DNA of 64,000 nt. It comes from Dentipellis sp. KUC8613 (taxonomy: Eukaryota; Basidiomycota; Agaricomycetes; Russulales; Hericiaceae). The stretch is taken from NCBI GenBank assembly GCA_002286715.1, contig NSJX01000046.1:67446-131445 (forward strand), written 5' to 3'. A model generated the notes under the pieces. That model saw only the letters and a list, made by a program, of their open reading frames with translations. It had not been told where the DNA came from and did not search any database. Position 1 is the stretch's first letter, and the number at the start of each line of letters is the position of its first letter. Positions 32,054 through 64,000 of this stretch are shown in pieces. The translations under genes and the position numbers were made by a program.

Positions 32054-33778
32054 TCAGCCAGAATCCTCCTTCCTCGAGAAGGTGAAAAGCTCTAGCACTG
32101 ACCGCCCAATCTCTTTGCCGCTGACGTCGACAATCGCTCCATTGACTGCTTCGCGTCGGATATTCAGGACAATGTGTGAAGTCAGGATTACGTGGAATGC
32201 GTGCTGTATTCTGGGTGGCTCGCGTGTCAGAAATGCAGGCCACGGAGAAAATATGGTGCACACAGTAAGAGTAGTTTCGTGTATTCATGCTACAGGAACC
32301 AACAACTTCAGCACCAGATCGATCATCCCGATAGGCCACTTACTGGTGCGAGGACTGCAACAAGGACATTCGAGATAGATAGGACTGTGTGAACAGTACC
32401 AGTGTCAGCACTAGAATTTCTAAGATTCAATAAACCCATACCGAGCAGAATCAGATAAGCCGCAATGCCTACGCATGAATTGTGAGCTTCAAGATCGCGC
32501 ACGACAGACCACTTTTGGAAAGACATGCCATCTCTATACAGGATGAAAAGTAGTGGTGAGACCGTACGCCGGGCTACAAAATCAGATCCCGTCACTTCAA
32601 TCGGAGCAAAAAATCGCGGAGACGTACAGTTCTGCAAGGCTTTGGCCAAGGTCAGGCCCGCGATGGCTACAAATGACAAGTCGTGAAGTTAGCAATTTGT
32701 TCTGAAGAAGTATCGATAATTGGGCGAAAGGAGGCGACGCGTGGATTTTTCCGGGAACGATGGTCGAGGTGGCGGCCGATGAAACTCACCTGTCTCAAAA
32801 GCCAAGATGAGGGACCAGCTGATGATATATGGCGGGTCGCCACTTCCCGTCGCAAAGCACCCACGCAAAGGGGACTCGGTCGATATAACAGGAAGTGAAG
32901 TAGTCGGAGCAACTAGATGAGATACGTGATCAAAGAGCAACGTGTTATGGTGTAGTTCCACGCACATTGGACGGAGGGGTTGCCTTTTATGAGGAACGGG
33001 CATGCGATGGCCCCCACAACGATAGCCATGCCTACCAGGGCACAGCCAACCCGTTTACTCTTTCCCCACAGCGCGTACGTGCGAAGACAGAGAATGACTA
33101 CACATATGTCATAGGCGTCAGCTAGCTATAAGGGACGGCGCTCGAAGCCAGATACTCACTCTCAGACAAATAAACCCCGCCACTGATTAGCCCTACAGAG
33201 GACATGGGCGCTTAAGGACGAACGTGAGAAAAGCACAGAGAGCAATTCCACACACTCGCAATAGCGCCGTGAAGGCCCGAACATGTAGGTGCAGACAAGT
33301 CTGACCCGAGTTGATCTATATCGCCAGAGCGGAGCCTCTGATCAGCCAACGAGTACCACCAGTAGTGCAGGTGAACACTCACAATAGATAGCAATGCATA
33401 TATTCGGGAAAGCGACATAGCGGTTCAGCAAGAACACGACTGTGAGTGGACTCCATGATCCGCCCCAGACAAACTCAACTTCGTCCGCGAGGGTACACAA
33501 ATGGTCGTATACCTGCAAAGAGTCGCCGAGTCAGCCACAATTATGGCCAAAATAAATATACGATAGCCCATACAAGCAGCACACCCGCGCTCACTGTATC
33601 ATTTGCAGCATCAGCGTAGGCCCACAGCGATAAAACTCGTGAAACGGACAATCGCAGCACTATGCCAAGGTATGAGCGGTCAGCAGGAGTTTGGCGGCGA
33701 CGGGCGGAGACGCACCAACAGCGCAACCTTGCTTTTCAGGATTGCAGGTATAATTTGATCGGATGCCACTGTGTCCAT
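32054..33778 (-). CDS. DUF6533-family membrane protein, array member 1
   Basis: This is a multi-exon minus-strand gene. Exon 1 (33716-33778) codes MDTVASDQIIPAILKSKVAL. A tiny exon containing VSAGVLL follows, then the 130-nt core exon 33383-33512 (YDHLCTLADEVEFVW, VVFLLNRYVAF). Next come a TM block with ILCLRTYALWGKSKRVG (about 33,000-33,100), the Cys segment SPLRGCFATGSGDPP with SWSLILAFET (about 32,780-32,885) and AIAGLTLAKALQN (about 32,630-32,670). The last exon contains FHVILTSHIVLNIRREA and ends at 32054. Several hydrophobic helices make it an integral membrane protein. The DUF6533 family has no established function that I know of. Middle exon borders were not all fixed. Confidence 0.82.
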
Positions 33779-35080
33779 GTTCGCGTACGAGGAAGCACCG
33801 CTGCATCTTCTGCTTTTATGCGCAGGAGGCGTGGGCTCCCAGGGCCTGCGCGACAAGGGGACGGTTCTCTGCTGATAGATCAGTTCGAAACGTCTGGCGC
33901 GCTCCTTGATAGATTCAAGTGGATACTTTGGACAATCTAAGAGAAAATGCTGCCTTGTAAGGCGATATCATAGAAGCGCATCACACCTCGCACTGTTCGA
34001 GATATATTCTGTTGTCTTGCGTCGTGAGAGGCCCAATGCAGGAGTTCCTTTAGCGCCTCGTAGAGATAGTTTCGCAGGAGCTCGCTGAGATATTTTTGGG
34101 GCGCTTCAAGCCAATCGGAAGGCAGTGAGGATTCTGATGGCACAGCTTCAGCACTTGCAGATACACGGCTGTGACGCCTTTTCAGGCTCAGTATGGTGCT
34201 TGTCAAGAGGAGTTAGCTTTCATCTACAAGTGAGACCACGACACCGAAGGCAACGTATCGGTTGTAAAAGAACGCAGCTTCAACTGCACTCCTACAAGGT
34301 TGATACATCAGTTGAACCAAGTAGTCGGCTTGATGTGCTGAAGCACATTGCAGCTGTGCCGCTGCTGATGCAGCGTGACATCAGCAACAAGAGAGATGGA
34401 TGAAGAACTGGAATGCAAAGTGAGCACAGAATGGGCGAGTAATCAGAGAAAGCGGATACGTACCACCGCAACGCAGCCTCCGGGTTGCAGCGCTGTCGCT
34501 GAGCGGTCCGCTTCGCTGCTGCTACCGCATTTATATTTGGTCTGCAGTGCAACAATGCGTGCTACATACTTTACACCCGTTGATGCTGTCAAAATCTTTG
34601 TGCCAGCACCGCGCAGTGATTCTTGGGCGTTCGTAAGTTTCGTTGTTCATAACGCCTCTATTGACCGACTTGCTAGGTTATACAGGCCGCAGTACTTGAC
34701 CAGGTCGAGTGTCACCACGGTGCGTCGTTGAAGCGAGCCAGGAAGCGCTGATGCGCACATCGCGGACCTGATATCACAGCCGCTGAAGATACATGCAGCG
34801 GTGGGGCTGGTCGCACCGGTACCACGACAGACGTCCGTCGACTGTCTCGGAGGTTGGTTGGGCCGATGAAATTTTGGCGGAAGTGTACCAGTGAAGTCCC
34901 GTCATCGCGTCACCTATGTACGGCATATGAGCATGAGCAGCCGCCCTGTTGGTCAGCCGCTCCAGCACCGCTCGTGACAGGTTGAAGGGTGCTTTGCCAG
35001 CAAGTAGCGCATTTGAGTATCACATACGTACACATCTCAATCGCTCCCATACTCATCGCCCATCTCCTCGCCCAGGATTA
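33779..35080. other. spacer in the DUF6533 array
   Basis: This spacer separates array members 1 and 2. Two minus-strand frames (33937-34206 and 34292-34555) are the only notable coding potential. The part 34,560-35,080 shows nothing I can name. Confidence 0.4.
33937..34206 (-). CDS. possible small protein or exon, unrecognised
   Basis: An 89-codon frame has a helix-forming, moderately charged composition, with WLEAPQKYLSELLRNYLYEA and ARQQNISRTVRGVMRFYDI. It could be the last exon of a small minus-strand gene whose first exon lies in the 34292-34555 frame (a GTACGT donor follows the ALRW codons there). No family was recognised, and it may be chance. Confidence 0.22.
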   Translation of the reverse strand: MTSTILSLKRRHSRVSASAEAVPSESSLPSDWLEAPQKYLSELLRNYLYEALKELLHWASHDARQQNISRTVRGVMRFYDIALQGSIFS

Positions 35081-36715
35081 TCAACATCTGTGGCACCGCC
35101 CCGGAGCCGCTTCAAACGCTGAGACCATTTGCTCAAGCTCTATGTCATCAGCATTGGATGCAACAACGGTCCTGGCCTGGGCATTCTGTCGGATGTTGAG
35201 GAAGATACGGCTCGTCAGAACCACGTGAATAGTTCGCGTTGACCTGCTCCAATAGAACAAACAAGCAGTGAGCATGGGCATTGAAACTTACAAAGGAGGC
35301 AACGAAGACGCACATAGGAAGAAGATCTCCGTATTTGAGCTGCGAATACCCAAAGGTTTATTTTCAATACCGGAAGACCGGGATCACGACGAATACTCAC
35401 GACCCCGAGTGATTGAACTATAAGGCAGATGAAGGACCAGGCTGTGATACATCATCAGCTGAAGGATAATGCTACTTGTCGAGGTAAGGGATGAATACTT
35501 ACGAAATACGAACAGGAAGGCCAAAACCCCTGTGCAGGAAGTTAGGGGGTTAGTTGGATGCAAGCGCGAAATGTGGAGTCACTCGCCGTCTCGGTACAGA
35601 GAAGTAATCAAGCGTGAGCTTGCACCAACTGCTTTGACTGAGTTTCTAGCTGTCAAGACCGACCAGTACCTAATTGGGCTTCAGAGCTTACAGTACTGGA
35701 TACCTTTGATCAAGGTAAGACACAAAATCACTTAGGCCAAGAAAGAATAAGCATGTATGATCGCATCGATACTCGATGTAGAGCGTACCGAGTTCATACG
35801 CGACAACGATTGCACAATAGATACAAACCTCATGCGAATATGTGGGGAAGCATCCTACGGCATATGGCGCCATCCCGGTGGTTGGAATGACTGTAGTGGA
35901 TAAGATTCGGACGATCAGGAAAATCAGAATAACTTACAACGCACATTGCAGAGTTTCCACAAATTTCTGGGTATTCACACCGTTTACAACGGTTGCGGCC
36001 ACAAGGACCACCACTAAACCCCAGCCAACTAGCTTATTCTCCTGCCATATCACGTAGGTACGAATGACGAGGATCGCTGGACATGATGGCTATTCTGAGC
36101 GCCGAGAACTCGAGCTGCATCCAGAGGCACTTACCCTCCGAGACGGTAAATCCTAGCACAAGAGTCCCTGAATGCACATTTTTGCTCAGTCATACATATA
36201 TAGAAAGAAGATAGACTTACAAGCATGGACATTATATATGTTATGGCATGTCGCAGCAGAAATTTCTGATCTTAAGTCTGCTGAAATCCAGTTCGTGAAC
36301 CAGCCTGAGAGCAATGGCAAATATGCGTGACTGCTCACCGTATAGGCACAGACCTACGGTCACAAATGCGGAATACCGGTTCAGAACGAATACAGCTTTT
36401 GCGATGGTCCAACGAGACCCCCAGATTATGTTCTTTTCATCAGGAAAGGTGATGAAATAGTCGTAGATCTAGAGTAAGGGTAAGCCGGCGATGTCCGTCG
36501 TCTGGGGGCTGCTCACATACCAGCAGAGTCGATGCTCCAACTATGATTGTAGCATAATCAGTAATGACATCGCACTTTTGAATGGTACACCTACGATCAA
36601 GGTACTAAATAGCATATTAGCTTTAGTCGATAATTTAAAAAAAATCGGCACACACCGTCGCGATTCTCATCTGTTCGAGCGCAGACGCGAACATCTCATT
36701 ACTTCCCAGATCCAT
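35081..36715 (-). CDS. DUF6533-family membrane protein, array member 2
   Basis: The layout matches member 1. Exon 1 (36656-36715) codes MDLGSNEMFASALEQMRIAT, followed by a micro-exon with VGASTLL. The 130-nt core exon 36339-36468 reads YDYFITFPDEKNIIWGSRW and VFVLNRYSAFVTVGLCLY. A TM block with IRTYVIWQENKLVGWGLVVV lies at about 35,940-36,070, and the Cys segment PYAVGCFPTYSHEVCIYCA at about 35,790-35,870. The final exon has HVVLTSRIFLNIRQNAQART and the acidic tail DDIELEQMVSAFEAAPG, closely similar to the tail of member 3. The glutamate of the usual FPDEVEL motif is altered to DEKNI. Function unknown; exon ends between the named segments are approximate. Confidence 0.82.
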
Positions 36716-38600
36716 GTTTGTCGTTTAGATTCCCACATTTCACGTTCACCTCCTTTATATGCACCGTCCGACGCATGAATAGTCGGACGTGATGCATGCA
36801 GCGTGAGCCTGAAGATTTTGTCCTTCATCTAAGCTCACGGCCGTCTTCAGTACGAGGAAACTTTCGGATAGATAGCGGAGAGCTCACTCACGGATGTTTC
36901 AGACGTTACTGCCATGGCGCTTCGCATACACATGTCACCGGCTCACTGCGCAGCCTCTTGGAGCTGTGTCCTCCCTTCAACACCGCAAATTTTGCGGCCA
37001 TCGGGTGTGCCTTGGCCGCCTCAATTATGGCGATATGAGACTGTTAGGGATTTGATCAATATGGACGAGCAAATAACTCTTGCTCTAGGGCTTTGGGTGT
37101 AGGCTGTACTCATGATTACCGAGTCGAGCTACTTCAAAGGTTTGAGTAAGGCATGAGTATATCCCAGTACTTTTGCGCCACTTACAGATCAAATCCGAAG
37201 ACACAGCGGTAGGAGACAAGACTCCTGTTCATAGTGTGACAAGTACAAGACGAAGAGAATTGCGAGGACAACGGCCGCTGCAAAGCTAAAGAGTTCTACG
37301 CGATCACGTGCAGACTCTACTTCCGTTAATCGTTTGGCAATATTTTTGTCCTCGTAAGCGACGCGCTGCGGTGGCCGGCCCCAGTCTCCTGTTGCTCTCC
37401 TAGTCTTTCCTTGTCGTACACTCTAGCACGATTTCCGTTTCTTTCTTCCACTCGTTGGCGCGGATAGACTCGTGCCAAAGGATTTAACGTCAAAGTCCAC
37501 GCACCGTGCTGGTTAAGTCGCACGCGATGCACCACGAGGAAGGACTCGGGCTGGACAGGAAATCCAATTCACAGACAGTGAGTTCATTTCACTCATTGAA
37601 TGTGCTTTTTTATAGTGATGTTAGATGCGAAAGGCTGCGCCTCGGCTGTGATGAGATTGGCTTCGTCCGAGCCTCCGTAAGTGTTCGCCGACTCTCAGCC
37701 CTCTTTGCGGTTGGCGCAGGAGTCCAGCTAGTCCAGAATGGTGCAGCGCAGCTCATGACCGTCAATTTTCGATCCAACGCAGCAAAATTCGATGGTAGTG
37801 ACGAGGAATCAATGAAGCCATTCAGAGATAGAGTCTACTACATAGTGGTGTAGAGTCAACCATCTAGCAAATGCAAGAGGGATTTCAGGGACCTTGTCTT
37901 CGGGAGATGCTGTGACTCGACTAGTCACGGTGGGCGCGTGCATTACTGTCCCTGTCCCGGTAATGTAAAAGTTTTACTAACAGTGTCCCATTGTCCCACA
38001 ACTGCGTCATCCCTCATTTTAACATCACATTTCGATTTGAGTACATCTTGGCTACACTTACTGCAGATTTCTAATTTTTTGGAGGAGTGGAATGTACTTT
38101 CGGCAGTGTTGCAAAAGGGGGGCCCGTTTGCACGCCAAGGCGTCGAGACGCCACAAAAACGCGTCGCGGGAATTGACACTCCGCCTCAATGCCGCAGTGC
38201 CGAATGCAGGCCAGGCTGCGGTGTTCAAGCGGAGTCTCGTTCGGCACGCCGTAGATGTGTTGGACATCCTGTCCATTTCGCAAATGTTGGCATATACAGG
38301 CGTGCTCCTGCCATTCTTCGCTTAAAAAACATGTCGAGGACACTTTCTGAATGACGCTGAACAACATCTTGGACTTTTCGGAAGCTCCGAGGCTGTGGGA
38401 CGCGATAGCGAGGCTCCGACTTTTAGTTACACCTGTTGCAAAACCCTCCGAAACGCACTGTTGATTTTCTAACACTCGCAAAATCGAGCCGCACACTTAT
38501 TTCTCTCGCATACAGAGATTGGTATCTATCTACTATGCTTTCATATTTTTGTTATTGTACAGACATACGTGCTGTGGACGGGAACATCGAATTTTGTGTT
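36716..38600. other. region between array member 2 and the P450 duplication
   Basis: It holds repeat R1 copy 1 (37329-37672) and an adjoining segment of about 75 bp (37,673-37,760) that resembles 54,130-54,210. A minus-strand open frame of 141 codons (38071-38496) and a plus-strand one of 115 codons (37506-37853) show no recognisable family. The latter overlaps the repeat and may be the decayed remains of a gene. Confidence 0.4.
37329..37672. repeat. dispersed repeat R1, copy 1
   Basis: About 340 bp match 42902-43252 with scattered differences. Shared blocks include the GCGACGCGCTGCGGTGGCCG stretch, GTTGGCGCGGATAGACTC and GCCAAAGGATTTAACGTCAA. Both copies contain a potential ATG frame (CCAAAGGATTTAACG) that is interrupted, so the unit may derive from a gene. 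No terminal inverted repeat was seen. Confidence 0.75.
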
Positions 38601-39110
38601 ACTGGTCCATTTTACATAACCGGGACAGGGACAGTACATACCGTACAGCCTTCAAGTTATCTCAAGCTCTTACCAGTGAATGGCATGCACGCTGGTGCAT
38701 GCTCTATTTCTATGTCTCAGTGGTATACTAGACTACCGTGACTACGTGTTGGTATGAAATCAGTACCCTCATAATTGACTCACACGCTAAAGAATCGTTC
38801 GATTTCATTTTTTCCCCATTACAGGCATCGTCTACGAGCCTTCGTTGCTTCTGAACATCTTATAGCAACAGACCCTTCTAATCAGAAATTGAGAGCATGC
38901 GGGGGGCCAACCGACATCCCATAAATGGTTGCCTATCTACTCCGCTGAATGCTTCGTCTGCGTGTCACGGGAGGAGTATTTGCGATCTTGAGGCCGCATT
39001 TGGTCCATCGACGCCTTTAACACGTTCACTTAAAGTCTTTTCCAGCTCGCCATCATTTTTCGGACGATGACAAGCAAAGTTTCTCTGACACGCCCCGTCA
39101 GTATCGAGGA

Positions 39111-39120
39111 CATAAATAAC
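39111..39120 (+). promoter_or_regulatory. TATA-like box of P450 copy 1
   Basis: CATAAATAAC lies 40-49 bp before the P450 start codon, in a segment conserved with copy 2 (ATATAAGTAA). The position suits a fungal TATA element. Confidence 0.5.
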
Positions 39121-39159
39121 TGGGCAAGCTGAATACCCACTTCCCGTCTTTTACTTCAG

Positions 39160-41035
39160 ATGGCGTCAACTCCCACCTATAACGCTTCTGATGCCCTCAC
39201 CCTCATCGCTTCATTTGGATTATGTGCTTTAATTGTCCGTTATATTCGGAGTCCGTACCGCAAAGTTCCTGCCGGCCCTCGTGGTATACCTATCCTCGGG
39301 AATATCTTCCAGCTGCGTGAAGATATGACTCCTGCCTTCATGAAATGGCAGAAAATATACGGTATACCGAACTCTCCTTCTAATATCATGCAGTTCTGAC
39401 CTCGCCCAACTTGCTTTCAGGAGATATCTGCTATGTGAACATCGCTGGACAACCGATACTCATCATCAACTCGGGGAAGGTCGCTTTCGATCTTTTGGAT
39501 TGCCGTTCCGCTAATTATTCCGAGCGTCCGCGCCTGATTCTCGCGGGCGAGATTCTTTGTGGAGGTCTCTTCTTTGCCCTGAATCCTTACAATACAGTGT
39601 GAGTAGGTGACCCTTGCTCCCTTATTGCATCGCTAATTTTTCTTACAGGACGCGTCGAATGCGCCGAGCGTCGCACGAAGCCATGAGCAATCAAGCATCA
39701 CGGAAGTACCACCCTCTGCAGACCGCCGAAGCGGTCCTACTTACTCTCAGCCTTCTCGACCGACCCGAATCTTACGACCATCACCTCCAGCACAATGCTG
39801 CATCGCTCGCCATGTCAATGTTATATGACCACCCACCGACTTCGTCAGAGAACGACCCGTCCGTCCGAGAAATCAATGGTTTCATCAAGCAGCTATCCCA
39901 TTCTAGTCGACCGGGTGGTCATCTCGTCGAGGTCTTTCCTTGGATGGTTTACATCCCACAGAGGTCCGTCTACTACTACAACGAGATCCACCCATTTCTG
40001 AAATAGCAATTGCAGTTTGGCGAAATGGAAGCGGGAAGCCATGCTTGGGTTCCGGCACTACACGAAGGTGTTTGAGAATCTCGCTGACGACGTTGAGAAG
40101 CGTATGGTACGTAGATCATCCTATCATCCGTCACTGAACGCGGCCTCTCACTACTCATCTCCAGAGTACAGAAACCGTCCGACCATGTTTCACAGCTTCT
40201 TTGATCGAGAACAATAGTGCAGGCAAATGCGATCTTTCCAAGCGAGAAATCGCTTGGGCCGCAGGAGGCATGTTGTGAGTTCCATCAATCTCTAAGGGAG
40301 CATGGCTCATCGCTGACACGCTCAGTGCTGCTGGATCAGAAACGACGTCCAGCATCATGGCTTGGTTCTTGCTTGCGATGATCGCCTTCCCTGAAGTCCA
40401 GAAGCGTGCACAGGACGAGTTGGATGCCGTCGTTGGTCGCTCGCGGGTGCCGACCTTCGCAGACATCGAACACCTTCCATACATACAAGCGATGGTCAAA
40501 GAGTCGCTCCGGTGGCGAACGACCGTTCCTCTCGGGGCCCCGCACAGCAGCCTAGAAGACGATTGGTACGAAGGCATGTTCATCCCGAAGGGCACCATCT
40601 GTATCACCAATGTGCACTGCATGAATCGCGATCCGAGGGTGTTTGGCCCCGACGCGGCGGAATTCAAGCCAGAAAGATACCTCGACGCAACTGGCGCCAT
40701 CAAAGCGAATTCTGCGGACGATCATTATGGCTTCGGATTTGGTCGTCGCGTTTGCCCTGGCCGGTATGTGGGGAGCAACACGCTCTTCATCGACATTGCC
40801 GTCCTGCTTTGGGCTGCGAAGATATCGAGAGGGAAAGGCGACGCGGGGCCTCTCGACTTGGAGGGGTTTGTGAACACGGGCACAGTGATGTAAGTTATTA
40901 TGCTTCGTGTTTGAGAGCTATGTGACTGATTCCTAGGGTTGTAGTCATCCAAAACCATTCACTTGTGATATCCAACCTAGATTTACGGAGGCTCCGCATA
41001 TCTTGTCTCAGGAGAAAGAGTTCTTACTCCCATGA
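39160..41035 (+). CDS. Cytochrome P450 monooxygenase, copy 1
   Basis: Seven exons (39160-39361, 39421-39598, 39649-39963, 40016-40106, 40165-40274, 40326-40889, 40945-41035) give an uninterrupted 516-residue protein, full length for a microsomal P450. It has an N-terminal membrane anchor, the proline hinge VPAGPRGIPILGN, the I-helix AGSETTSS, the ExxR motif ESLRWR, the PERF-like FKPERY and the heme loop FGFGRRVCPGRY with the axial Cys. It should oxidise a small molecule at the ER, using electrons from P450 reductase. The substrate is unknown. It resembles the O-methylsterigmatocystin-oxidoreductase-like P450s that are expanded in wood-decay and mushroom fungi. The GC-poorer context and the near-identical copy at 54.9 kb show a recent duplication. 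Confidence 0.93.
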
Positions 41036-41644
41036 AGCCTCGGCGTATCAAGCCTGACGAGGTAGAATCAGTGAGGCATTTTATGTAGCCTTCTCCATGT
41101 ATATATCTCGCTTACTTTCTCCTCTGCTGACACCAAAATGTCGTTATCCTCCTTACCCTCTCAGGTGAGATTTCACCGTTAGCCACCTGAGTGCGCCTCT
41201 CACGAGACGTCTTATAGCCGGACACCTGACAGTTCGAATCACGGAGCTCTGTGAGGACCAGCGATTTTTATGATCAGAGCGTTGTGTGGGATGGCTTGGA
41301 TGCTGTCCAGAACTTGTGCTAACCTGTAAAAGTCGATTTTTCTATCCAACACAAGCAGTTTCCGTATCTCCCGGTTTTCACCCAACGCGCCGAGACTAAA
41401 CTGTTGGTCACAGCGGATGCTTCTGCGGTCTCTTTGCCCATTGCCTTCCATGCTTGCTTGACAGATGCCTCGCTACTCGGCGTGTCAGATGGTCCTTATC
41501 CGTGTCGAACTGTACAGTAGAGTCGATGATACTGAGCGTCAGCATCAGTTGTGTCCGACTGAGTCTAGGACAATAAGCCATCTATGTACAACACGAGGCC
41601 TCTATCAGACTACACAGAGGACGAGATCATCCGCAACGTCACTT
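41036..41644. other. conserved 3' flank of P450 copy 1
   Basis: This sequence is retained in both duplicated segments (compare 56,812-57,410) but carries no convincing gene. Small frames here are broken differently in the two copies. Confidence 0.5.
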
Positions 41645-42895
41645 GGATCCGTGAGGTGAGAATTACGTGGATTATGCGCTGTGTTCTTCCCGCTACCCCT
41701 GTGGTAGTGGGTCTTGTCGGTCGTTTCTGTCCGGGCAACTCGCGGTAGATTTGCAGATCTCATGGTGGCTGTACAAAACCTCCTATCTCTGACTCATGTG
41801 GCTTACTCTTGCTCCAAGATAAGATCTCATGAATTGTGCAATCCTGCACACTGTCCCGCAGTCTCTCATCCATCATCGTATAAACCCCAGCACCACCTAC
41901 TCGTAGGTGGTAAAACCCCGGTGTTCAAGGATTTTCGTTCGGGGCAATGTTCCACACAAGGAGCTCCACAGCGGCAACGAAGGGTGGTTAGGAACTCCCG
42001 GGGTGGGATCAGGTTGAAGTTCTCGTCGCGACGGTGTCCTGCACGGCCTTCGCGTTGACAAGTCGAAACTGGGGACCTTCTGCAACATACAACCTAAATG
42101 ATTAATTTTCAATTTTATCGTGATCTGTTGTCGACCCCCTCTGTATTCCTCATAATGCTGACCTTACTATTGGTGTCACTGTCTCCCGTCCCAGGCTTTG
42201 CAGATGCCTCTCGTGTCCCCTCCGTCTCTTTCCTACAGACAATATGTAACACCTACATGTCCTTATGTGTGGGTCCAGGTGAACGACATTCAGCTTGCAG
42301 TTGTCACAGATCACTTGTACGAGAGCTTCCACCACGTGTTGTGTTCTGGTGGTCCTCGCGTGCGGCTGGAAACTCAAGCTCTGGCGCTGTACGATGTCGA
42401 CGGCATCGCCGTGACAGTCCAGGTCATTGCCACCCGCGAGACATAGGGACAGGCTGCCGAGGTAGGCGGAGCATTGGTGAGCACTCAAGAGCTCTCCACC
42501 ACGGAGATATAGTATGGGAGTGAAAACTGGACTCGTACTGTTGCAACAGACGTCCGTCTGAAAGGAAACCCATACTTGTATTCAAAACAATGTCCGTAAC
42601 TGTACAAAAGGCAAAGGCTTGCGGAATGCTACATATTACTCACCGCAAACGAAGTCATATGCCTGTCTGAATTGTCCGAAATGCAGCACGCCGAGTGACC
42701 TGCAGGATTGTACTAGCAAGGGAAGGAAGAGGGTAGCGGGTTCTGCCACCTGCGCGCGGGTGGCCCTAGGGCTTATTCAATAGCCAGGGAGTGTTAGGAC
42801 GATCTAGAGGAGAGTGAGGAGAAGCGTACCCGGAGAGCAATGTCGCGTATGCGGGATGGACATACATTAGGACATTAGCATACATCAAGTTATTA
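41645..42895 (-). pseudogene. DUF6533 gene relic, split by an insertion
   Basis: On the minus strand, 41,645-41,688 encodes the QRIIHVILT part of the family's last exon. The segment 42,773-42,895 matches the preceding intron and exon of array member 6 (57,735-57,845, the NLMYANAPLCVQPAYATLL-like exon). Between the two lies about 1.08 kb absent from copy 2. The C-terminal coding end present at 57,565-57,685 is missing here. Beyond 42,895 the match stops abruptly at repeat R1. The rest of the gene is gone, so this is a truncated relic. Confidence 0.75.
41689..42740. mobile_element. putative 1.05 kb insertion with 10-bp inverted ends
   Basis: The segment is absent from the duplicate at 57.7 kb. 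It begins with CCCGCTACCC (41689-41698) and has the exact reverse complement GGGTAGCGGG at 42731-42740. TTCT occurs next to both ends (41684-41687 and 42741-42744), which could be a remnant target-site duplication. No transposase motif was recognised; the longest frames are 42198-42446 (plus) and 42150-42488 (minus). About 30 bp to the right of the inverted repeat also fail to align, so the borders are uncertain. Confidence 0.45.
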
Positions 42896-42901
42896 TAAAT
42901 A

Positions 42902-44543: not shown

Positions 44544-46160
44544 TCACGGTCTTGAGGCCGCTTGAAAAGCTGAGACCGTTTGCTGAAGTTCAATCTCTTC
44601 CATATTGGATGCGACAGCACGGCTTTGTGCACCACGTCGAATGTTGAGAACTATCCGAGCGACCAGGACTACATGAAGCGCATGCTGTGTTCTGTCAAAT
44701 TTTCAGGATCGTATGAGAGAATTTGGTAGGCATCATCGAAACGCACTCGGAGAGAAGATATGCGGAGCCCGTCTACATGCATCAGAATGTGAGCCACGTT
44801 TAGTCAAGTAGAGATGATTGACTGACGGGTGCAAGAAGGATGACGAGAACGTTCGCGATCGACGATACTTGGTCACATAGTTAGATACACTATCCGCTTG
44901 CGATGATACGAGCATACCGAGCAGAGCCGCGTAGGCCAGAGCACCTGCAACGCATGAAGTTGTGGGGCGGATAGTATGTGAACAGATTGAGGAAGCGCTT
45001 ACTGTCTCGAAAGATCACATAAAGAAGCGGTGAAGAAGTCTGCTTGACTGCACGGCGAGATTATTCGGGGCAAGAGTGAATGTAATTATATACCACTTAC
45101 GGTTTTGTAAGGCTTTAATCATGGTAAGCCCTATGATAACTGCAAAATCGACCAGGCCGCAGTTGAGACCGGCCAACAGTAGAAAAACGATTCTGACGTA
45201 CTGGTTTCGAAGCCCAAGACAGTTGTCCAACTGACGATCAAGGTGTGGTTGATCTTCTTCACGAAGCAGCCCGGCAGTCCAGGCAATACGGTGCTGGCTG
45301 GGGGGCCTGAGATCGAAATGAGGCTTTGAAGGTGATGATCTGGGATGCCACAACGTACTTTCCATGGAACGAATGTTCTTCTCCATGTAAACAATCTCCA
45401 CGATCCACGCAACCATGAGCAGCAATCCCAAAGCGTAGCCAAACATCTTCGGCTTCCCCCACACGGCGTAGGTACGATAAATGAGGATTACTCAGTATCG
45501 TCTGCTTCAGTACGAGCTAGATGGGGCAGGAACGGGCTTGTTGATAGACGACTTACTCTCTGACAGAGCAATGCTGCAAAATATTAGCCCTGTGCACAAA
45601 CGTAAGAGCAATGCCAGCACGAATGGAGACATGATGTACATCCATTGGTAGCATGAAGAGCTGAGCAGAGTGAACTCGAGAGACGGTGTCCGAATTGGTC
45701 TAACGACATCGAAACCATAGCATCAGCGCGCTCAATGGGCGAATGCTCGGGTACTTACGGTACAAACCGACGACCGTGTTGCCGAAGGCGGCATACCGGG
45801 TCAGCAGAAATGCAATCTTGATGGCACTCCAGTCCGATTTCCATATTAGCTCGACTTCATCCGGAAGGGTAAGGAGGTAGTCGTAAAACTGTCCTTACAA
45901 TGACCCATTAGTTCGAGTACCAAGCAGCATACGCGATCATTGTCATACCAACAGAACGCATGAAGTCACTGCGATTTCAGTATCCACTTCGTAAATAGAG
46001 ATTCAATATGAAGAAGAAAAGTTGACCGACAATCAAAGATCTAGCCTAGCGTATGAGCAAACATGAAGGGGGTACGCTAGAGGAGATATGCATTTACCGT
46101 CACAATCTTGTTCTGCTTCAGCGCAACCACAATGTGCTGGGATGCTGTTGTCGCATCCAT
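44544..46160 (-). CDS. DUF6533-family membrane protein, array member 3
   Basis: Exon 1 (46098-46160) codes MDATTASQHIVVALKQNKIV. A micro-exon with TSCVLL precedes the 130-nt core exon 45759-45888 (YDYLLTLPDEVELIWKSDW, IAFLLTRYAAFGNTVVGLY). The TM block around VWGKPKMFGYALGLLLMVAW is at about 45,340-45,470. The Cys segment LPGCFVKKINHTLIVSW is at about 45,220-45,290, with VIIGLTMIKALQ near 45,110-45,140 and TSSPLLYVIF near 45,010-45,040. The last exon carries HALHVVLVARIVLNIRRGAQ and a tail NMEEIELQQTVSAFQAASRP. This is the cleanest family consensus in the array. Multi-pass membrane protein of unknown role. Confidence 0.85.
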
Positions 46161-48512: not shown

Positions 48513-50134
48513 TTACCGTCCTGGCGCGGCTACGAAGTCCGATATTGTTTGGGCAAGTTCCATATTTTCGAAATTGGATGCTACAGCTTCGCAGCATGCC
48601 TTTCGTCGAATGTTGAGGACGATCCGCGAAGTTAAAACCATGTGAAGCATGTGCTGTGTCCTGTACGGACTTCAGAAAGGGGAATGATGATCCAAAAAGC
48701 TGATGGTACAGACTGGGAAAGTGTGTATGTATAGCCGGGCTAATTGATGGTATTCAGCATATGTTCAGCTATTGATATGGCGTAAAATCACCCACCGGTG
48801 CCAAAGTAGTCAGAAGAACATTCATGAGGGAAGACACTGAGTGGACAAAGTTAGTGCTGCCCAAGGAGGGTTCGTGTTGAAGAGCGCGCACTAAACAATG
48901 GCAGATAAGACAGAATACCTAGGTGAAATGTATGAGCCAAATTCAACGTAAGATGCTCGTCAAGAATGTACCATCTCGAAATACTGTATAGAGGAGAGGC
49001 GAGGACGGTTGTCGGGCTGCACGATCAGGTCGTCTGGAGTCGGGTAGCGGGCCACTGCCGGGCCTACTTCGGCAACCCTGCCAGGCTTTGATTGCGGTCA
49101 TGATCATGATGACTGAAACAAGTGTAGCTGCAGTCAGTAGATGTTCCGATTCGCGAGTGGAGAAGCCAGAGGACGCGATTCCACCTACTAGTTTCAGAGG
49201 CTAGCGCCAACGACCAGATCAGACCATACCAGGCATTGTCAACTTTGGTCACAAAGCATCCTCGAAGTTCGAGCGATAAACTACCGATTGGGATGACTGT
49301 TAAAATGTTCAAATATGCGAGAGGATATGATACCATGTGTCAACGTACATTCGAGAGAGTGAAGGGCTTTATTGAGAGAAAACCCTATGACCGTCAGAGC
49401 AACGATGGCTAATGATCCCAAGAAATAAGCAATCTGTTTGCTTTCTCCCCATAGTGCATAAGTACGGAAGGAGAGAATTACTAGATAAATACGTATCTCA
49501 TATCAGTTTGACGGCTGCAGGAATTCTAGAATCGACTGCTTACTTTCCGACATGGCGATGCCGACAGCTACCAACCCTGCGTTCACGATCTGAAAATTAG
49601 CTTGGCGCGAGAGGAGGATGATGTCAGACGTACATCCATGGGTAGTATAGATACCTGAGCATTCAGAACTTGAGAGACGAGGCCCAAGAATATCTACGTA
49701 TTCGGTCATCGGACTGAGGACCGACATGGAAGCGAACCCATGCCCACCATAGACACTCAAACCCACGTCCCACAAGGCAGAGTAGCGGTTGAGCAAAAAT
49801 ATGACCTTCAGCATAGTCCAGCGCGACCGCCAGACTAACTCAATCTCGTCTGGAAGGGTAAGAAGATAGTCGTAAGACTGTCATGAATACAAGAGATTAG
49901 CCGCAGTCAATATATGATCAATAGCTTCTGCACCATTATTACATTCGCGCTCACTGTGTTAGTCGTTAGTGTGGGTTTGGCAGCGGAAAAGCAAAGGGAC
50001 TTGTGAACGGACAAGCGATGCGCTAAGCAGGAATATGAGCAATGATTAGATGGGTAATTCTGGATGCATACCGTCGTGACCATGCTCTGCTGCAACGCGA
50101 TGATAATCCGACTTGTTGCCGCCTCTGTGTCCAT
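48513..50134 (-). CDS. DUF6533-family membrane protein, array member 4
   Basis: Exon 1 (50072-50134) codes MDTEAATSRIIIALQQSMVT, then a micro-exon with VSANVIM. The core exon is 49748-49877, again exactly 130 nt (YDYLLTLPDEIELVWRSRW, VIFLLNRYSALWDVGLSVY). A TM block with FRTYALWGESKQIAYFLGSL lies at about 49,345-49,480. The Cys segment LSLELRGCFVTKVDNAW with LIWSLALASET is at about 49,190-49,290. The last exon reads HMLHMVLTSRIVLNIRRKA and ends in a short tail, FVAAPGR. All family landmarks are present and unbroken, so it is probably functional. Function unknown; middle exon borders not all fixed. Confidence 0.83.
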
Positions 50135-54420: not shown

Positions 54421-54884
54421 ACAGGCTGATTTATCATCTCAAGCTCTCACCAGTAAATCGTATGTACACCCTGTGACATGCACTATCTCCATGTGTTGGC
54501 AGTATCCTCCAGCTTCCTGCTAGGATGAAATTGGTACGGTTTCCGTCTACTCACACGCTGAAGAGCCACTTCGATTGTATCTTCTTTACAGACCTCTTCG
54601 ACGAGTTTTCGTAGCTTCCGGGCCATCTGCCGGAAAAAGGTCCTTCTACTCGGAAACTTAGTGAGCGTAGGAAGCCAATCAAAATCCTGTCAGTGTCAAT
54701 GGTCACTTCTCCACTCTGTGAAAATTTCGTCGGAGTACTGTCACGGGAGGAGTAGTTGCGACCTTGGGGCCGCATTCGGTCCATTTTCTCCTCTATCTTG
54801 GCCACTCACAGTGTTTCCTAGCTTCCCATCATTTCTTAGGAGACGACGTCTGAAGTTTCTCTGACACGCTACGTCAGTATCGAG

Positions 54885-54894
54885 GATATAAGTA
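54885..54894 (+). promoter_or_regulatory. TATA-like box of P450 copy 2
   Basis: ATATAAGTAA lies 45-54 bp before the start codon. It corresponds to the element at 39111-39120 in copy 1 but is closer to a TATA consensus. Confidence 0.5.
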
Positions 54895-54938
54895 ACTCGG
54901 CGTGCTGGGTGCCCATGCACTTCCCATCTTGACTTCAG

Positions 54939-56811
54939 ATGGCGTTAATTCCCATCTACAGCTACTCTGATGCCCTCACCCTCATCGCTTCATTTGTATT
55001 ATGTGCTTTTATTGTTCGTTACATCCGGAGTCCGTACCGCAAGGTTCCTGCCGGCCCTCGTGGTATACCTATCCTCGGGAATATCTTCCAGCTGCGCGAA
55101 GATATGATTCCTGCCTTTATGAAGTGGCAGAAAATATACGGTATACCGAACTCTCCTTGCAGTGTCTTGCAATTCTGACCTCGTCCAATCTGCTTTCAGG
55201 AGACATTTGCTATGTAAACCTCGCTGGACAACCGATACTCGTCATCAACTCGGGAAGAGTCGCTTTCGACCTCTTGGATTGCCGTTCCGCCAACTATTCT
55301 GAGCGTCCGCGCCGGATTGTGGCTGGCGAGATTCTTTGTGGAGGTCTCTTCTTTGCCCAGAACCCTTACAACGCAGTGTGAGTAGGCGTCTCTTGCTCCC
55401 TTACGGCATCGCTCATCCCTTCTCACAGGACGCGTCGAATGCGCCGAGCGTCGCACGAAGCCATGAGCAATCAAGCATCACGGAAGTACCACCCTATGCA
55501 GACCGCCGAAGCGGTTCTACTTACTCTCAGCCTTCTCGACCGACCCGAATCTTACGACCGTCACCTCCAGCGGAATGCTGCATCGCTCGCCATGTCAATG
55601 TTATATGGCCACCCACCGATTATGTCAGAGAACGACCCGTCCGTCCAAGAAATCAATGGTTTCATCAAGCAACTATCCCATTACGGCCGACCGGGGGGTC
55701 ATCTCGTCGAGGTCTTTCCTTGGATGGTTTACATCCCACAGAGGTCCGCCTACTACTACTACAAGATCCATACATTTCTGGAATAGCAATTGCAGTTTGG
55801 CGAAATGGAAGCGGGAAGCCATGTTGGGCTTCAGGCACTACACGAAGGTGTTCGAGAACCTGGCTGACGACGTAGCAAAGCGTATGGTACGCAGATCGTC
55901 TCATCATCCGTCATCCGTCGTTCCTCACTACTCGTCTCAGAGCACAGAAACCGTCCGCCCATGCTTCACAGCTTCGTTGATCGAGAACAATAGCGCAGGC
56001 AGTTGCAATCTTTCCAAGCGAGAAATCGCTTGGGCCGCAGGAGGCATGTTGTGAGTTCTATCAATCTCTAAGGAAGCATGGCTCATCGCTGACACGCTCA
56101 GTGCTGCTGGATCAGAAACGACGTCCAGCGTCATGGCTTGGTTCTTGCTAGTGATGATTGCCTTCCCTGAAGCCCAGAAGCGTGCACAGGACGAGTTGGA
56201 CGCCATCGTTGGTCGTTCGCGGGTGCCAACCTTCGCCGACTTCGAACACCTCCCATACATACAAGCGGTGGTCAAAGAGTCGCTTCGGTGGCGAACGACC
56301 GTTCCTGTCGGGGTCCCACACCGCAGCCTAGAAGACGATTGGTACGAAGGCATGTTTATCCCGAAGGGCACCATTTGCATCGCGAACGTGCACTGCATGA
56401 ATCGCGATCCGAGGGTGTTTGGCCCCGACGCGGCGGAATTCAAGCCAGAAAGATACCTCGACGCAACTGGCGCCATCAAAGCGAATTCTGCGGACGATCA
56501 TTATAACTTTGGATTTGGCCGCCGCGTTTGCCCTGGCCGGTATTTGGGGAGCAACACACTCTTCATCAACATGGCAGTCTTGCTTTGGGCTGCGAAGATA
56601 TCGAGAGGGAAGGGCGACGCGGGGCCTCTCGACTTGGAGGGGTTTGTGAACATGGGCACAGCGATGTAAGTTATTATACTTCGTGTTTGAGAGCTACGTG
56701 ACTGATTCCTGGGATTGTAGTCATCCGAAACCATTCACTTGTGATATCCAACCTAGATTTACAGAGGTTCCGCATATCTTGTCTCAGGAAAAAGAGTTTT
56801 TACTCCCATGA
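54939..56811 (+). CDS. Cytochrome P450 monooxygenase, copy 2
   Basis: Seven exons (54939-55140, 55200-55377, 55429-55743, 55796-55886, 55941-56050, 56102-56665, 56721-56811) have exactly the same lengths as those of copy 1 and give 516 residues. Motifs are retained: VPAGPRGIPILGN, AGSETTSS, ESLRWR, FKPERY and FGFGRRVCPGRY. Differences are scattered substitutions such as YNTV to YNAV, KCDLSKRE to SCNLSKRE, ADIEHLP to ADFEHLP, and DDHYGFGF to DDHYNFGF just before the heme loop. Intron lengths differ by only a few bases. No stop or frameshift was found, so both copies look active, possibly with slightly different substrate ranges. It acts as an ER-bound monooxygenase by family. Confidence 0.93.
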
Positions 56812-57564
56812 AGCTTCGGTGACGAGGTAGAATCGGTGGAGTAATTTATGTAGCCTTCTCCATGTAAATATCTCGTTGACTTTCTGTTCTGCTGATGCCA
56901 AAATGTCGTAGTCCTCCCTACCCTCTCGGGTGATCTTCATCACTGGCCACCTTGCCGCGTCAACTGAGTGCGCCTCTCACGACATCTCATGGCCGGACAC
57001 CTGACAGTTCGAATCGCGGAGCTCCGTGAGGACGAGCGTGTCCTATGATGTGTGAGATAGCTTGAATGCTGTGAATCCAACCCTTGTGCTAATTTGTAAA
57101 AGTTGATTTTTCTATTCAATCCAAGCAGTTTCCGTATCTCCCGGTTTCTAGCCAAAGCACCGAGACTGGACTGTTGGTCACAGCGGATGCTTCTGCAGTA
57201 CATTTCTCCATTGCCTTCCACGCTTGCTTGACAGATGCCTCGCTACTCGGCGTGTCAGACTGTCCTTATCCGTGTCGAACTCAATCAAGAGTCGATGATA
57301 CTGAGCGCCAGCGTCAGCTGTGTCCGACTAAGTCTGAGAAAATAAGCTATCTATGTTCGACACGAGGCCTCTATCAGACTACAATGAAGACGAGATCATC
57401 CGCAACGTCACTTGGTGGGAGTACAGACCAACGGATGCGGAGCTCACGGCAGATGATACTCGGCGTAACACTTCGACTCCAACAATAGAGAAAGCGTGGG
57501 CTCCTGTACTATCCCATGGGCCTCAGCCTCAGACTAAGTGCACGCGGCCCTTCCTTTGATGAAC
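56812..57564. other. conserved 3' flank of P450 copy 2
   Basis: Shared with 41,036-41,644 up to 57,410. It runs to the stop codon of the convergent array member 6. No separate gene was recognised. Confidence 0.5.
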
Positions 57565-59878: not shown

Positions 59879-61444
59879 CTATCCGGCTGATATCGTTATG
59901 AGCTCCGTCTCTCCGCGATGAAATGCGATGGGGGCGGCAGCTTGATCTTGCGCATTACGTCGAATATTAAGAACGATGCGAGTCGTGAGGATCGCATGAA
60001 GAACGCGTTGAATTCTGGGCAGATCCGAGCCAGGTATCGTCAAGACGGTTCAGGAGATGAGCCACCGAACGTACAGGGTGAGTAACGTTGTATAGCCGAC
60101 CTGCAGAAGGTTCAGCACGGCGATAAACACCCTTATTGACGAAGTATTAGTACTCACTGGTCCGAAAGCCAGGACTAGAACATTGGCTAATGATGACACT
60201 ACAAACAGCAGGAATGACTATCGCAAGGCACTTCCTACTGCTATAGTGAAGGGCACGAACCGAGCAACAATAGGTAGGCCAGAATTCCTGTCGAGGAATG
60301 ATGAGTACCCTGTTCGCGAGTTCGGAGCTTCACTTACCATCTCGATAGACATAGAAAATAAATGGTGATGTTCTATGCTTGACTAAACGACTAATCCATT
60401 AGGTCAAGAGAGTGGGAGCCTGCTTTGGCACATACAGTGCTCAAAGCCTTTGATCAAGAATAGGCCGATGACGACTAAAAACTAGATTAGACAGGGTCAC
60501 GATGAGTTCACTGTATGAAGTTTGGGCGCACCAGTCTCATACTCCAGTGGTATTATGTAGCAGATGTACAGTTTATTGTTGGCCTTCGACACGAAGCATC
60601 CACGAACGACTGGTAATAATCCTGCAGGTTGAGAAACTAGGCGAAAATCAGTTAACCGACATGAAAAAGGAACTACGAGGAAAACGCACATTCCATGGAG
60701 CGGAGGAACTCATCGACAAAAACACCCACTAAGATCGAGCAGGCGATGAAAAGGATCCCTAGTCCATAGGCCATCTTTTGGCTTCCTCCCCAAACAGCCC
60801 ATGTCCGAGCAGCGATGATTGCTGAATGGCATTAGCATCAAACTATACGCAGCAGTAGCCAAGTACTCACTCTCCGAAAGGCCAGTACCGAAGACCATCA
60901 TCCCTGGTTCATCTAAGCAGCGTAAACTACAGATATCCGGGCGCAGCACACTCACATCCACCGGTAGAATAGAGAATATTGCACACTGGGCCAGGGACAT
61001 TATAACCCAGTTGCTCTGTTCGTTACGCTGAAAAATCAGTGAATACTTGAATGTTTGTCCAAAAACACTCACGATACACGTCAAACCCTGTGTCGATGTA
61101 GGGCGTATATCGATTGAGTAGGAATATAACTTTAGAAACGGTCCAGCGAGATCTCCAAATCAACTCGACCTCATCCGAAAACGTGAGGATATGATCGTAG
61201 AGCTAGAGTATCCGTGATACATTAGCCCTGAAGAGAGGTCATGACAGAAAGCGCACACCAGGAGGACCAGCGAGCTCACTACATGACGGCCGTGATGAGC
61301 TAAAGCTCGGAAAGAAAGATCTCATTCGCTTACATCCAAAGCACTAGTAAGGAATGTTAGCGAGCGACAGTCCATCCATATCTAGTTGCGTACCCCGACA
61401 ATCCACATCTGCCTCACCAGTAGCATGGCCATGTCTGCATTCAT
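59879..61444 (-). CDS. DUF6533-family membrane protein, array member 7
   Basis: Exon 1 (61394-61444) codes MNADMAMLLVRQMWIVG and is shorter than in the sisters. Two small exons lead to the 130-nt core exon 61073-61202 (YDHILTFSDEVELIWRSRW, VIFLLNRYTPYIDTGFDVY). A TM block with AARTWAVWGGSQKMAYGLGI lies at about 60,690-60,825. The Cys segment GLLPVVRGCFVSKANNKLYI is at about 60,560-60,640. The last exon has QRVLHAILTTRIVLNIRRNA and the tail FHRGETELITISAG. The Cys segment and tail are much closer to those of member 8 than to other members, marking these two as the youngest pair. Function unknown. Confidence 0.82.
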
Positions 61445-63056
61445 GTTGCTCGTCGGAGGTCCACCAGCGCACCTTGGAGCCCTCTATGTGCTGGGAAGGG
61501 TCTGTAGATAAGGCATGTCGGTGTTCAGTTGATAGTTGGATGTCTACGACGACAGCACAGCACGGCAGGCAGATCGCAGCGGCCTGGATATGAACCAACG
61601 ATTTCAAACCTGCGCCACAGGGACGGTTGAATCACCAACTATGCAGGCGAACGTATATGCTTATCGGGCTAGAGGGGAAGTACCAGAGATGACTGTATAA
61701 CGTATGATATGATCAATGCATGGAGCTGAATGGCGCTGCAACGAAGACTCACTGATTTGTCCGAAGGGCACGAAGAGAGCCCTGACAGACAAGGATCGTC
61801 GAAAAAACATGGCTACGGAATATACTGTTGTTCTCTGAGCTGGTTCACTGAGTGACGTCCGCACAAGAAATAATTCCTCGACGTTCCCGGGGCGGATGTG
61901 TGATCCTGAACGTGAACAGCCTGAAGAAATTGACACCGTGAAGCCGATGTACGACGTAGACACGTATGCCTCGGCTGGTTTTGTTGCGCACCAAGGCAAA
62001 GTACAGCTATTGATAAAATGAACCTCTTTTAGGGGAAAGCACATCTTTAAAGAAGCCGGCAGCTTGCAACGTAGCGAGGGGACCATGCCGAGCGAAGACC
62101 AAGGCGTTCTAAGGACAGACGATCCAGGCATCAGAAACAGATCAGTCGGAGAGGCATCTTTGGCAGGCGCTAGTGGTTCCCTCTATGCATCAGTAAGAGA
62201 TTGATACCATCGAATTGTCACATACGACAGATGGAGGGCAGCTAGGTTTGCACTGCTGTTTGGGAGTGGCGACGATTTGACCCATCCTGTATGGTGTGGC
62301 CAGATGACCGACTCGAAGTATTCACTACGTTCAGGAACGAGTGCAAAACGGTGCCTACCATTTTCGGCACTGGGGTACCAGGGTCTTGCCAGAGTGACGA
62401 GCTGCGGATTATGGTGATCACTACCATGCCCATTGCCACTGTGGTGTCTCCGGCAACGATAAGTCCAGAAGCATCGGAAGATATTGTGTATGCGCAGTGT
62501 CAGGGCTTCGGCTTCGAAGACTTCGGATCCAGGATGCCAGAGCCCCAATCCTTAATGGTTCCGCCGATCTACCACTCACGCGGGGCAATATGACTTGCTG
62601 TCTGCTGATCTCACATACCCATCGTATCCAAACATTGCTCAGCCTGAGGCACTGTCGAGTTCAGATCTAGGAAGACGTGACAGCCACCTAAGAGAAGACG
62701 ATGATAGCTTACCGAAACCACACGGACAGACCAGCGCTCATCCGAAGACTTGCGAAGGGCGCAAAGGAGATCTATTGACGAAAGTGAAACTAGGCGCCGA
62801 GGGTATCCGGTCAGTATCAAAATGCCAGCAAACTCAATCGTCAACCAATGAGCTGAAGGCATCGCCCCCGAAGTCCTGGACCCGGTGGCTTGATGCTCCT
62901 GAAAAAAATTCACTAATATAAACTGATGTTACATTGACACCAGAGGTGCGTTTTCGTAACCTAACTGGGTCTGAAAATTGTCAAGCAATCAATCGGAAGA
63001 AATCACGGATGCTATATTCTCGAGCTCTTACCCGTCCCCTTCTTTCAATATTTCTC
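61445..63056. other. 1.6 kb spacer in the array
   Basis: The most open stretch is 62291-62593 followed by 62595-62921 on the plus strand, with antisense frames of equal length. No motif or convincing splice joins them. Confidence 0.4.
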
Positions 63057-64000
63057 TAGTTCGCAGACTGCTGTCCCACTGAGATTGTGACGAGCTCTGT
63101 GTCTCCGCGCTGGAACACGACGGGGGCAGCAACTTGCGCATTGCGTCGAATATTCAGCACAATGCGCGCGGTGAGGATTACGTGTATAACACGTTGAAGA
63201 CTGTAGACTATAATTTAGAAATAGCCAAGAAGTCGGGAGAGCAGAAGGAATACAGACAGGGTGAGAAGTGTTGTGTATCCGACCTGCAAGCATCCGGATT
63301 TAGAAGAGTATCAGTGGTACTCCCCATGAAACACTCACTGGGCCTGAAGCCAGGACGACAACATTGGCGACAGACGACACTACTTTGAGGTGTCAGAAGA
63401 TATCCCGAGACACCTCAAAAGGCACGGACCGAGCAGAAAGAAAAATGCTAATAATCCTGCAAGATATCGTTTGAGCACCGCAGCCAAGAGGATCGCAGGA
63501 CTCGCTTACCATCCCGATAGACCTGGAACATGAGCGGCGAGGTTCTGCGTTGAACTATGTGACAGAATTGTGAAGACATAAAGGAAACGACCCTCGTGAG
63601 GACGTACGGTGCTTCATGCCCTTGACCAAGAACAGGCCGATGACAACTATATAGAATAAAATGAACAGAGCGGCAGCACGTTCTTCAAAATTTGACTTAC
63701 TAGATTCGTATACCAGCGGTATGACATAACAAATATACAGTGTTTTCTTTGCCTTCGAAACAAAACATCCACGGATGACCGGTAGCAAGCCTGCTGGCTG
63801 AGAGACTAGAAAATAGTCAGTTAATCCGGTATGGCAAATTCAGAGAAGGACGCACACTCCATCGAGCGAAGGAAATCGTTGACAAAAACCCCTACTAGAA
63901 TCAAGTCCGTAACGAACAGTGTCCCTAATCCGAAAGCGATCCTTCGTCCTCCTCCCCAGACGGCCCATGTACGAGCAGCCACGATGACTTGATAGGTTGA
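63057..64000 (-). CDS. DUF6533-family membrane protein, array member 8, 5' part beyond the window
   Basis: Only the 3' half is inside the window. Reading from the right edge: VAARTWAVWGGGRRIAFGLG and the following helix (about 63,860-63,990), the Cys segment GLLPVIRGCFVSKAKKTLYI with CYVIPLVYES (about 63,710-63,800), a conserved LFLVKGMKH stretch near 63,610-63,650, and a last exon with QRVIHVILTARIVLNIRRNA and the tail FQRGDTELVTISVGQQSAN, ending at 63057. Closest relative is member 7. The core exon and start codon lie to the right of the window. Confidence 0.8.

What the first reader, a model, noticed from the sequence alone, without database searches (positions are those of the whole stretch)
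32054..64000. Tandem array of at least eight DUF6533 membrane-protein genes, all on one strand
Eight copies occur within 32 kb with no other conserved gene family except two P450s. All seven complete copies share the same architecture and the eighth leaves the window, so the true array is longer. Its coupling with duplicated P450 genes suggests a fast-evolving accessory locus. The function of the family is unknown to me. Roles in environmental sensing, self/non-self traits or transport of a P450 product are all open.
Basis: partly seen in the sequence, partly recalled or inferred. Interest (0 to 1): 0.75.

Follow-up and report, generated by a model that had tools for sequence, protein, structure and literature searches.

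The report
Mushroom array of GPCR-like membrane proteins
A wood-decay mushroom carries a row of ten related genes, largely shared with a sister species, whose proteins are predicted to fold like cell-surface sensor receptors and which sit among detoxification-type P450 genes; this makes a poorly understood mushroom gene family testable as a set of chemical sensors.

The parts
32054..33778 (-). D1: DUF6533 gene, 14 exons, one frame break in exon 10 (49 nt; 45 in 8 copies, 51 in D2); probable pseudogene or sequence error; D. fragilis counterpart EVG20_g5398
35081..36715 (-). D2: intact DUF6533 gene, 14 exons (public model P0068, 99.7%); counterpart EVG20_g5397
44544..46160 (-). D3: intact DUF6533 gene, 14 exons (public model P0129 differs, 92.8%); counterpart EVG20_g5395
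48513..50134 (-). D4: intact DUF6533 gene, 14 exons (public model P0070 differs, 93.5%); two D. fragilis counterparts, EVG20_g5392 and part of P0126
51676..53282 (-). D5: intact DUF6533 gene, 14 exons (= P0046, the protein modelled); counterpart in P0126
57565..59163 (-). D6: intact DUF6533 gene, 14 exons; counterpart P0002. The public protein P0001 (493 aa) joins most of D6 to part of D7
59879..61444 (-). D7: intact DUF6533 gene, 14 exons; sister of D8 (72% identity); no D. fragilis counterpart found
63056..64000 (-). D8: intact DUF6533 gene (public model P0051), C-terminal part; continues beyond the window to window-coordinate 64638
38659..41646 (+). P450a: block holding a cytochrome P450 gene (Pfam exon 40315-40809); 85% identical over 3 kb to the P450b block
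54436..57415 (+). P450b: block holding the second P450 gene (exon 56088-56585)
41646..41688 (-). Relic of the start of the last exon of a D6-like gene (97.7% to 57685-57727) beside P450a
42783..42892 (-). Second relic of the D6-like gene (85% to 57733-57842, includes PAYATLLSG of D6)
37327..37653 (.). About 330-bp direct repeat (88.5%) with 42900-43227, flanking P450a and the relics

Best explanation
The array is an old tandem set of seven-helix GPCR-like membrane receptors (Pfam DUF6533) in the genus Dentipellis. It is kept by purifying selection, while individual receptors diverge somewhat more on their outer side. Proposed mechanism: each protein sits in the plasma membrane with its N-terminus outside. 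Its more variable outer half meets a small chemical signal, perhaps wood- or competitor-derived. The conserved inner face (TM1 end, ICL1 and TM2 start, i.e. the DUF6533 motif, plus Arg111 of TM3, Arg-Asp of TM6 and Arg of TM7) passes the signal to a common partner, most simply a G protein. The P450 genes around and within the array would handle compounds in the same chemical space. Shown: the array, gene models, counterparts in D. fragilis, low dN/dS in tested pairs, predicted GPCR-like fold, conserved Cys pair and Arg, local P450-D6 block duplication. Inferred: orientation, ligand binding, G-protein coupling, joint function with P450s.
Against: No sequence link to a GPCR: the 77-sequence profile found 0 PDB chains at E <= 10, and Pfam gave only DUF6533 plus weak hits (Serpentine_r_xa in 3 of 77, best E 0.016). 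Foldseek TM-scores are modest (0.35-0.50 of the query). In VIA-align the class A GPCRs score about as the microbial rhodopsins do (13-14); only Ste2, designed folds, TAS2R14 and some mGlu entries stand higher. A Suillus DUF6533 model (pLDDT 80) had no Foldseek hit at E <= 0.001, with 5 microbial rhodopsins among its 50 rows, one with the best TM-score; its VIA order is designed folds 19.1 and 17.9, TAS2R14 16.0, mGlu 15.8, Ste2 14.7, bacteriorhodopsin 14.2, adiponectin receptor 13.9. The innermost fifth of the TM helices is as variable (1.57) as the outermost (1.60), and the C-tail is the most variable part. Helix ends, not coordinates, set these bins, and the Cys-Cys distance was not measured. 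No expression, ligand or G-protein data. The 77 sequences are mainly Suillus and Dentipellis.
Confidence: 0.58

Rival explanations
1. The proteins are membrane enzymes or small-molecule transporters that work in one pathway with the neighbouring P450s, for example handling a P450 product; the seven-helix fold is only superficially receptor-like.
For: Interleaving with at least 9 P450 exon hits on C113, including the 8 best PF00067 scores of the genome; one P450+D6 block duplication; conserved charges in or near the helices, D34, R62, E105, E183, R211/D212, R256, could be catalytic or ion-binding; the Suillus model is nearly as close to bacteriorhodopsin as to GPCRs.
Confidence: 0.21
2. Self/non-self or developmental receptors: the copies mark individuals or act in fruiting-body patterning, as the DUF6533 protein Snowball (SNB1) does in Coprinopsis cinerea.
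For: SNB1 carries DUF6533 and seven predicted TM helices, and its loss stops fruiting-body differentiation (PMC10949477, passages and section 8).
Against: Counterparts stable between two species, partly in the same order, do not look like allelic recognition genes, but no population data were available. SNB1-family copy numbers are reported as 1-3 in most species and 4-5 in Psathyrellaceae, unlike the 47 DUF6533 exon hits here.
Confidence: 0.12
3. A decaying, mostly silent tandem array with no current role.
For: D1 frame break; D6-like relic; lower third-position GC (0.53-0.59 in D2-D10) than four neighbouring conserved gene pieces (0.67-0.84).
Against: 9 of 10 intact, dN/dS 0.14-0.19 in the four array-gene pairs with a computable value, TATA-like boxes in 7 of 10, counterparts for 8 of 10.
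Confidence: 0.09

Closest known systems
Snowball (SNB1), Coprinopsis cinerea, DUF6533 protein (PMC10949477, passages and section 8)
   Same: DUF6533 domain, seven TM helices predicted, outside N-terminus predicted there
   Different: Developmental gene with a long, poorly resolved inner loop; the authors say it does not conform to the GPCR classification. I did not fetch its sequence or test orthology
DUF6534 proteins proposed as a new fungal GPCR class (PMC12842992, passages and sections 20-21)
   Same: Basidiomycete seven-helix family with a DUF65xx Pfam name and a receptor proposal based on prediction
   Different: Different Pfam family; the terms DUF6533 and PF20151 do not occur in that main text
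Ste2, class D GPCR
   Different: No sequence match; I recall, without a call to show it, that Ste2 lacks the TM3-ECL2 disulfide
Pth11-related GPCR expansions of ascomycetes (PMC12842992 passages; PMC5526305 search listing)
   Same: Large lineage-specific set of putative receptors
   Different: Restricted to Pezizomycotina according to those texts; not compared by sequence here

Membership tests
Pfam DUF6533 (PF20151) | Profile match over the curated cut-off (24.1 bits) | tested here: met
   10 of 10 array copies, 49-62 bits per exon; D6 and D5 proteins 61.5 and 61.6 bits
GPCR superfamily | Seven TM helices in the GPCR arrangement | tested here: met
   AF2 model of D5 and its matches. Predicted, not solved; the Suillus model is less decisive
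GPCR superfamily | TM3-ECL2 cysteine pair | tested here: met
   C86 in 75 of 77, C163 in 76 of 77; bond geometry not measured
GPCR superfamily (class A) | Arg 3.50 at the inner end of TM3, in a DRY-type motif | tested here: inconclusive
   Arg at Cys+25 in 69 of 71, but the surrounding letters are not D/E-R-Y (e.g. Y-R-T-Y in D5)
GPCR superfamily (any named class) | Sequence similarity to a known class | tested here: not met
   0 PDB chains at E <= 10; no GPCR Pfam family at a credible E-value in 77 proteins. So it is not filed under a named class
GPCR superfamily | N-terminus outside | tested here: inconclusive
   K+R per 100 residues: inner loops 7.2, 20.3, 11.8; outer loops 2.6, 9.6, 1.7; N-terminus 4.5; sequons in the first outer loop in 8 of 17. 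Indirect
GPCR superfamily | G-protein coupling or ligand response | not testable with these tools
   Needs experiment
SNB1 orthogroup | Grouping with SNB1 in a tree | not tested
   SNB1 sequence not fetched
Biosynthetic gene cluster | Core synthase or cyclase beside the P450s | tested here: inconclusive
   30 ORFs scanned against Pfam in the window and C113 neighbourhood, not the whole contig; no core enzyme; one AMP-binding exon at 29.0 bits, cut-off 29.9

The most novel reading that the evidence does not exclude
DUF6533 is a basidiomycete class of GPCRs (Ste2-like fold, with a class-A-like disulfide and TM3 Arg), and Dentipellis has arranged it as a chemoreceptor gene cluster joined to a P450 cluster: a fungal counterpart of animal taste- or odour-receptor arrays, in which sensors and detoxifying enzymes for the same compounds are inherited and duplicated together.
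Probability: 0.33. Interest if true: 0.82.

Novelty: new variant of a known kind. Interest (0 to 1): 0.52.

Why it matters
DUF6533 proteins have an unknown mechanism although one of them (SNB1) is required for mushroom development. A defined, mostly intact, ten-gene array with a GPCR-like model, conserved residues at GPCR positions and counterparts in a sister species makes the receptor idea directly testable by point mutation and by array deletion. If true it would add a receptor class to basidiomycetes and give a molecular entry to how wood-decay fungi sense their chemical surroundings.

Tried and rejected
Recent, species-specific expansion: rejected by the D. fragilis counterparts and by dS 1.29 for the most alike array pair D7/D8.

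A single monophyletic array: rejected. Genes from C1, C69 and C161 fall among the C113 copies, with a 100/99 split between the D1/D3/D4/D5/D10 side and the rest (17 of 26 inner branches well supported; in the earlier tree, 11 of 27).

General DUF6533-P450 linkage: 4 of 22 clusters within 20 kb of a P450 hit against a genome fraction of 6.9% (binomial 0.06; Fisher against F-box 0.08); F-box control 6 of 102, DUF6534 3 of 12. Per gene 19 of 47, but that is driven by a few large clusters.

Shared upstream motif: TATA-like words rank first among 6- and 7-letter words but none survives correction for the number of words.

C1 P450s as copies of the C113 P450s: rejected, 26-29% identity in the pieces that match P450c and P450d (whose output was cut in the middle).

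Link to DUF6534 by comparison: loci fetched but the genes need spliced models; not pursued.

Codon-model omega by IQ-TREE printed nothing. Paper searches for fungal GPCR arrays gave nothing seen to bear on DUF6533 (no paper, listings only); one passage of PMC9220813 gave nothing on a Ste2 disulfide.

Rows dropped: A3 uses 77 of the 124 proteins then held (short, fused, insertion-bearing or redundant ones left out). One search uses 17 of 18 subfamily members (C45_257p out). One search leaves out D1. models 29 loci, which with the ten covers 39 of the 47 exon hits. The second half of P0125 was not compared.

Full report
What the window is. The window is C113:67446-131445 of a 34.1-Mb genome in 171 contigs. 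Public proteins on a contig of the same length, 227,363 bp, are named Dentipellis sp. KUC8613, and one equals the D6/D7 genes of the window. It is a white-rot fungus studied for aromatic-compound degradation (PMC10470841, passages).

Is the array there? Yes. PF20151 gives 47 exon hits in the genome, 10 of them on C113 between 100.8 and 146.5 kb. I built spliced gene models with a profile aligner of my own; the hand-made model of D6 agrees with it and with the matching part of public protein P0001. All ten copies fit 14 exons with nearly the same exon lengths, micro-exons of 10 and 20 nt included. Splice signals are 129 GT-AG and 1 GC-AG of 130, but the aligner favours them, so this is not independent evidence. 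Nine copies are open throughout. D1 has one frame break. Array copies score 818-1247. Stretches without a family gene reached at most 224 in the first scan, and loci of other DUF6533 subfamilies scored 275-411. Random placement never gave more than 4 of 47 genes in 47 kb (2000 trials).

What else is in it. The 32-64 kb interval holds two P450 blocks, 38659-41646 and 54436-57415, on the plus strand. They are 85% identical over 3 kb. Beside P450a lie two relics of a D6-like gene, 43 bp at 97.7% and 110 bp at 85%; D6 is the neighbour of P450b. So a block of P450 plus D6 was most likely duplicated and the second D6 largely lost. Of 10 other open frames of the interval scanned against Pfam, none had a match over its cut-off. 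Beyond the window follow a Yju2-like exon and an AMP-binding-like exon, then D9 and D10 on the other strand and more P450s. PF00067 has nine exon hits on C113, including the eight best of the genome.

Age. The 14-exon subfamily has 17 clear members here: ten on C113, three on C1, three on C69, one on C161. One divergent member lies on C45. In a tree of 29 proteins, D. fragilis proteins pair with D1, D2, D3, D5, D6, D9 and D10, each with support 99-100. D4 has two D. fragilis relatives and groups with the one in P0126 (96/89) rather than with g5392. By reciprocal BLAST the pairs hold except for D5, whose D. fragilis piece is partial and whose best score goes to the C1_2551 counterpart. Going by locus-tag numbers and contig lengths, g5398, g5397, g5395 and g5392 (like D1, D2, D3, D4) share one 28.5-kb contig in the order of KUC8613, and g10270 and g10269 (D9, D10) share another. 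None was found for D7 and D8. Outside Dentipellis the nearest relatives listed were at most 34% identical over half or more of the query. Those searches need shared words and scored at most about 8000 candidates, so relatives in Hericium are not excluded.

Selection. NG86 dN/dS is 0.14 for D7/D8 (dS 1.29), 0.14 for D5/C1_2551p and D9/C1_2539m, and 0.19 for D3/D4, the last three with dS 1.7-2.3 and so rough; two pairs (D3/D5, D6/C161_424p) were saturated; three pairs without array genes gave 0.10-0.15. Identities to D. fragilis are 64.4, 67.9, 67.1, 71.0, 66.1, 87.2, 70.6 and 69.1% for eight array genes and 89.7, 88.9 and 90.6% for three non-array genes (D4 taken against g5392). Every non-array value exceeds every array value (1 in 165 by counting). 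D. fragilis gene models often skip small exons, so the lower values are partly annotation error. After dropping poor stretches the array values are 64.5-87.2%.

Conserved residues. Of 77 proteins, D34, E42 and W51 are kept in 76, R62 and Y63 in 77, C86 in 75, C163 in 76, R111 in 73, E183 in 75, D212 in 74 and R256 in 74. C86 begins TM3, C163 lies in the loop before TM5, and R111 lies 25 residues after C86 at the inner end of TM3 (69 of 71). These are the positions of the GPCR disulfide and Arg 3.50 by the standard class A numbering (recalled). The DUF6533 motif itself (residues 22-66) covers the inner part of TM1, the first inner loop and the start of TM2. Conservation leans to the inner half and substitution to the outer half, but moderately: the best-kept zone is the fourth fifth of the helices, while the innermost fifth is as variable as the outermost.

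What is known. DUF6533 is named in 2 of 5.39 million papers searched, and its accession numbers in the same 2. One is the Snowball paper, which reports seven TM helices and says the protein does not conform to the GPCR classification. The other counts domains in Ganoderma. A 2025 paper proposes DUF6534, a different family, as a new GPCR class from machine learning and complex prediction; DUF6533 is not in its main text. So the receptor idea is in the air for a neighbouring family. In what I read of the two papers that name DUF6533 (passages and one section) I did not see the Cys pair, the Arg spacing or the Ste2-like match.

Conclusion. The array is an old, maintained set of GPCR-like proteins. 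That they sense compounds which the neighbouring P450s process is attractive but only locally supported.

Noticed in passing
window 57565-61444 (P0001): The public protein DENSPDRAFT_933153 (493 aa) joins part of D7 and most of D6 into one model; the spliced models show two separate genes. D. fragilis P0125 and P0126 look like similar joins.
   Followed up: yes
window 32000-64000 against 1-32000: GC falls from about 0.60 to about 0.50 at the start of the array and rises to 0.57 at the conserved genes between D8 and D9; array genes D2-D10 have third-position GC 0.53-0.59 against 0.67-0.84 in four conserved neighbouring pieces.
   Followed up: partly
C113 107-200 kb: At least nine P450 exon hits in about 92 kb, with the eight best PF00067 scores in the genome.
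   Followed up: partly
C1 2.543-2.565 Mb (L018, L020): Two P450 loci, alike by 86-98% in most translated pieces over about 2.3 kb, next to other DUF6533 genes; not close relatives of the C113 P450s.
   Followed up: no
window 37327-37653 and 42900-43227: About 330-bp direct repeat, 88.5% identical, flanking P450a and the D6 relics; nature unknown.
   Followed up: no
P0126 (D. fragilis, 4.4-kb contig): A second D4-like gene in D. fragilis groups with D4 more closely than the syntenic g5392 does (96/89), hinting at an older D4 duplication with loss, or at an artefact of partial sequence.
   Followed up: partly
C137, C140, C144: Weakly scoring DUF6533 hits (27-32 bits), several of them clustered; a divergent subfamily.
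   Followed up: no
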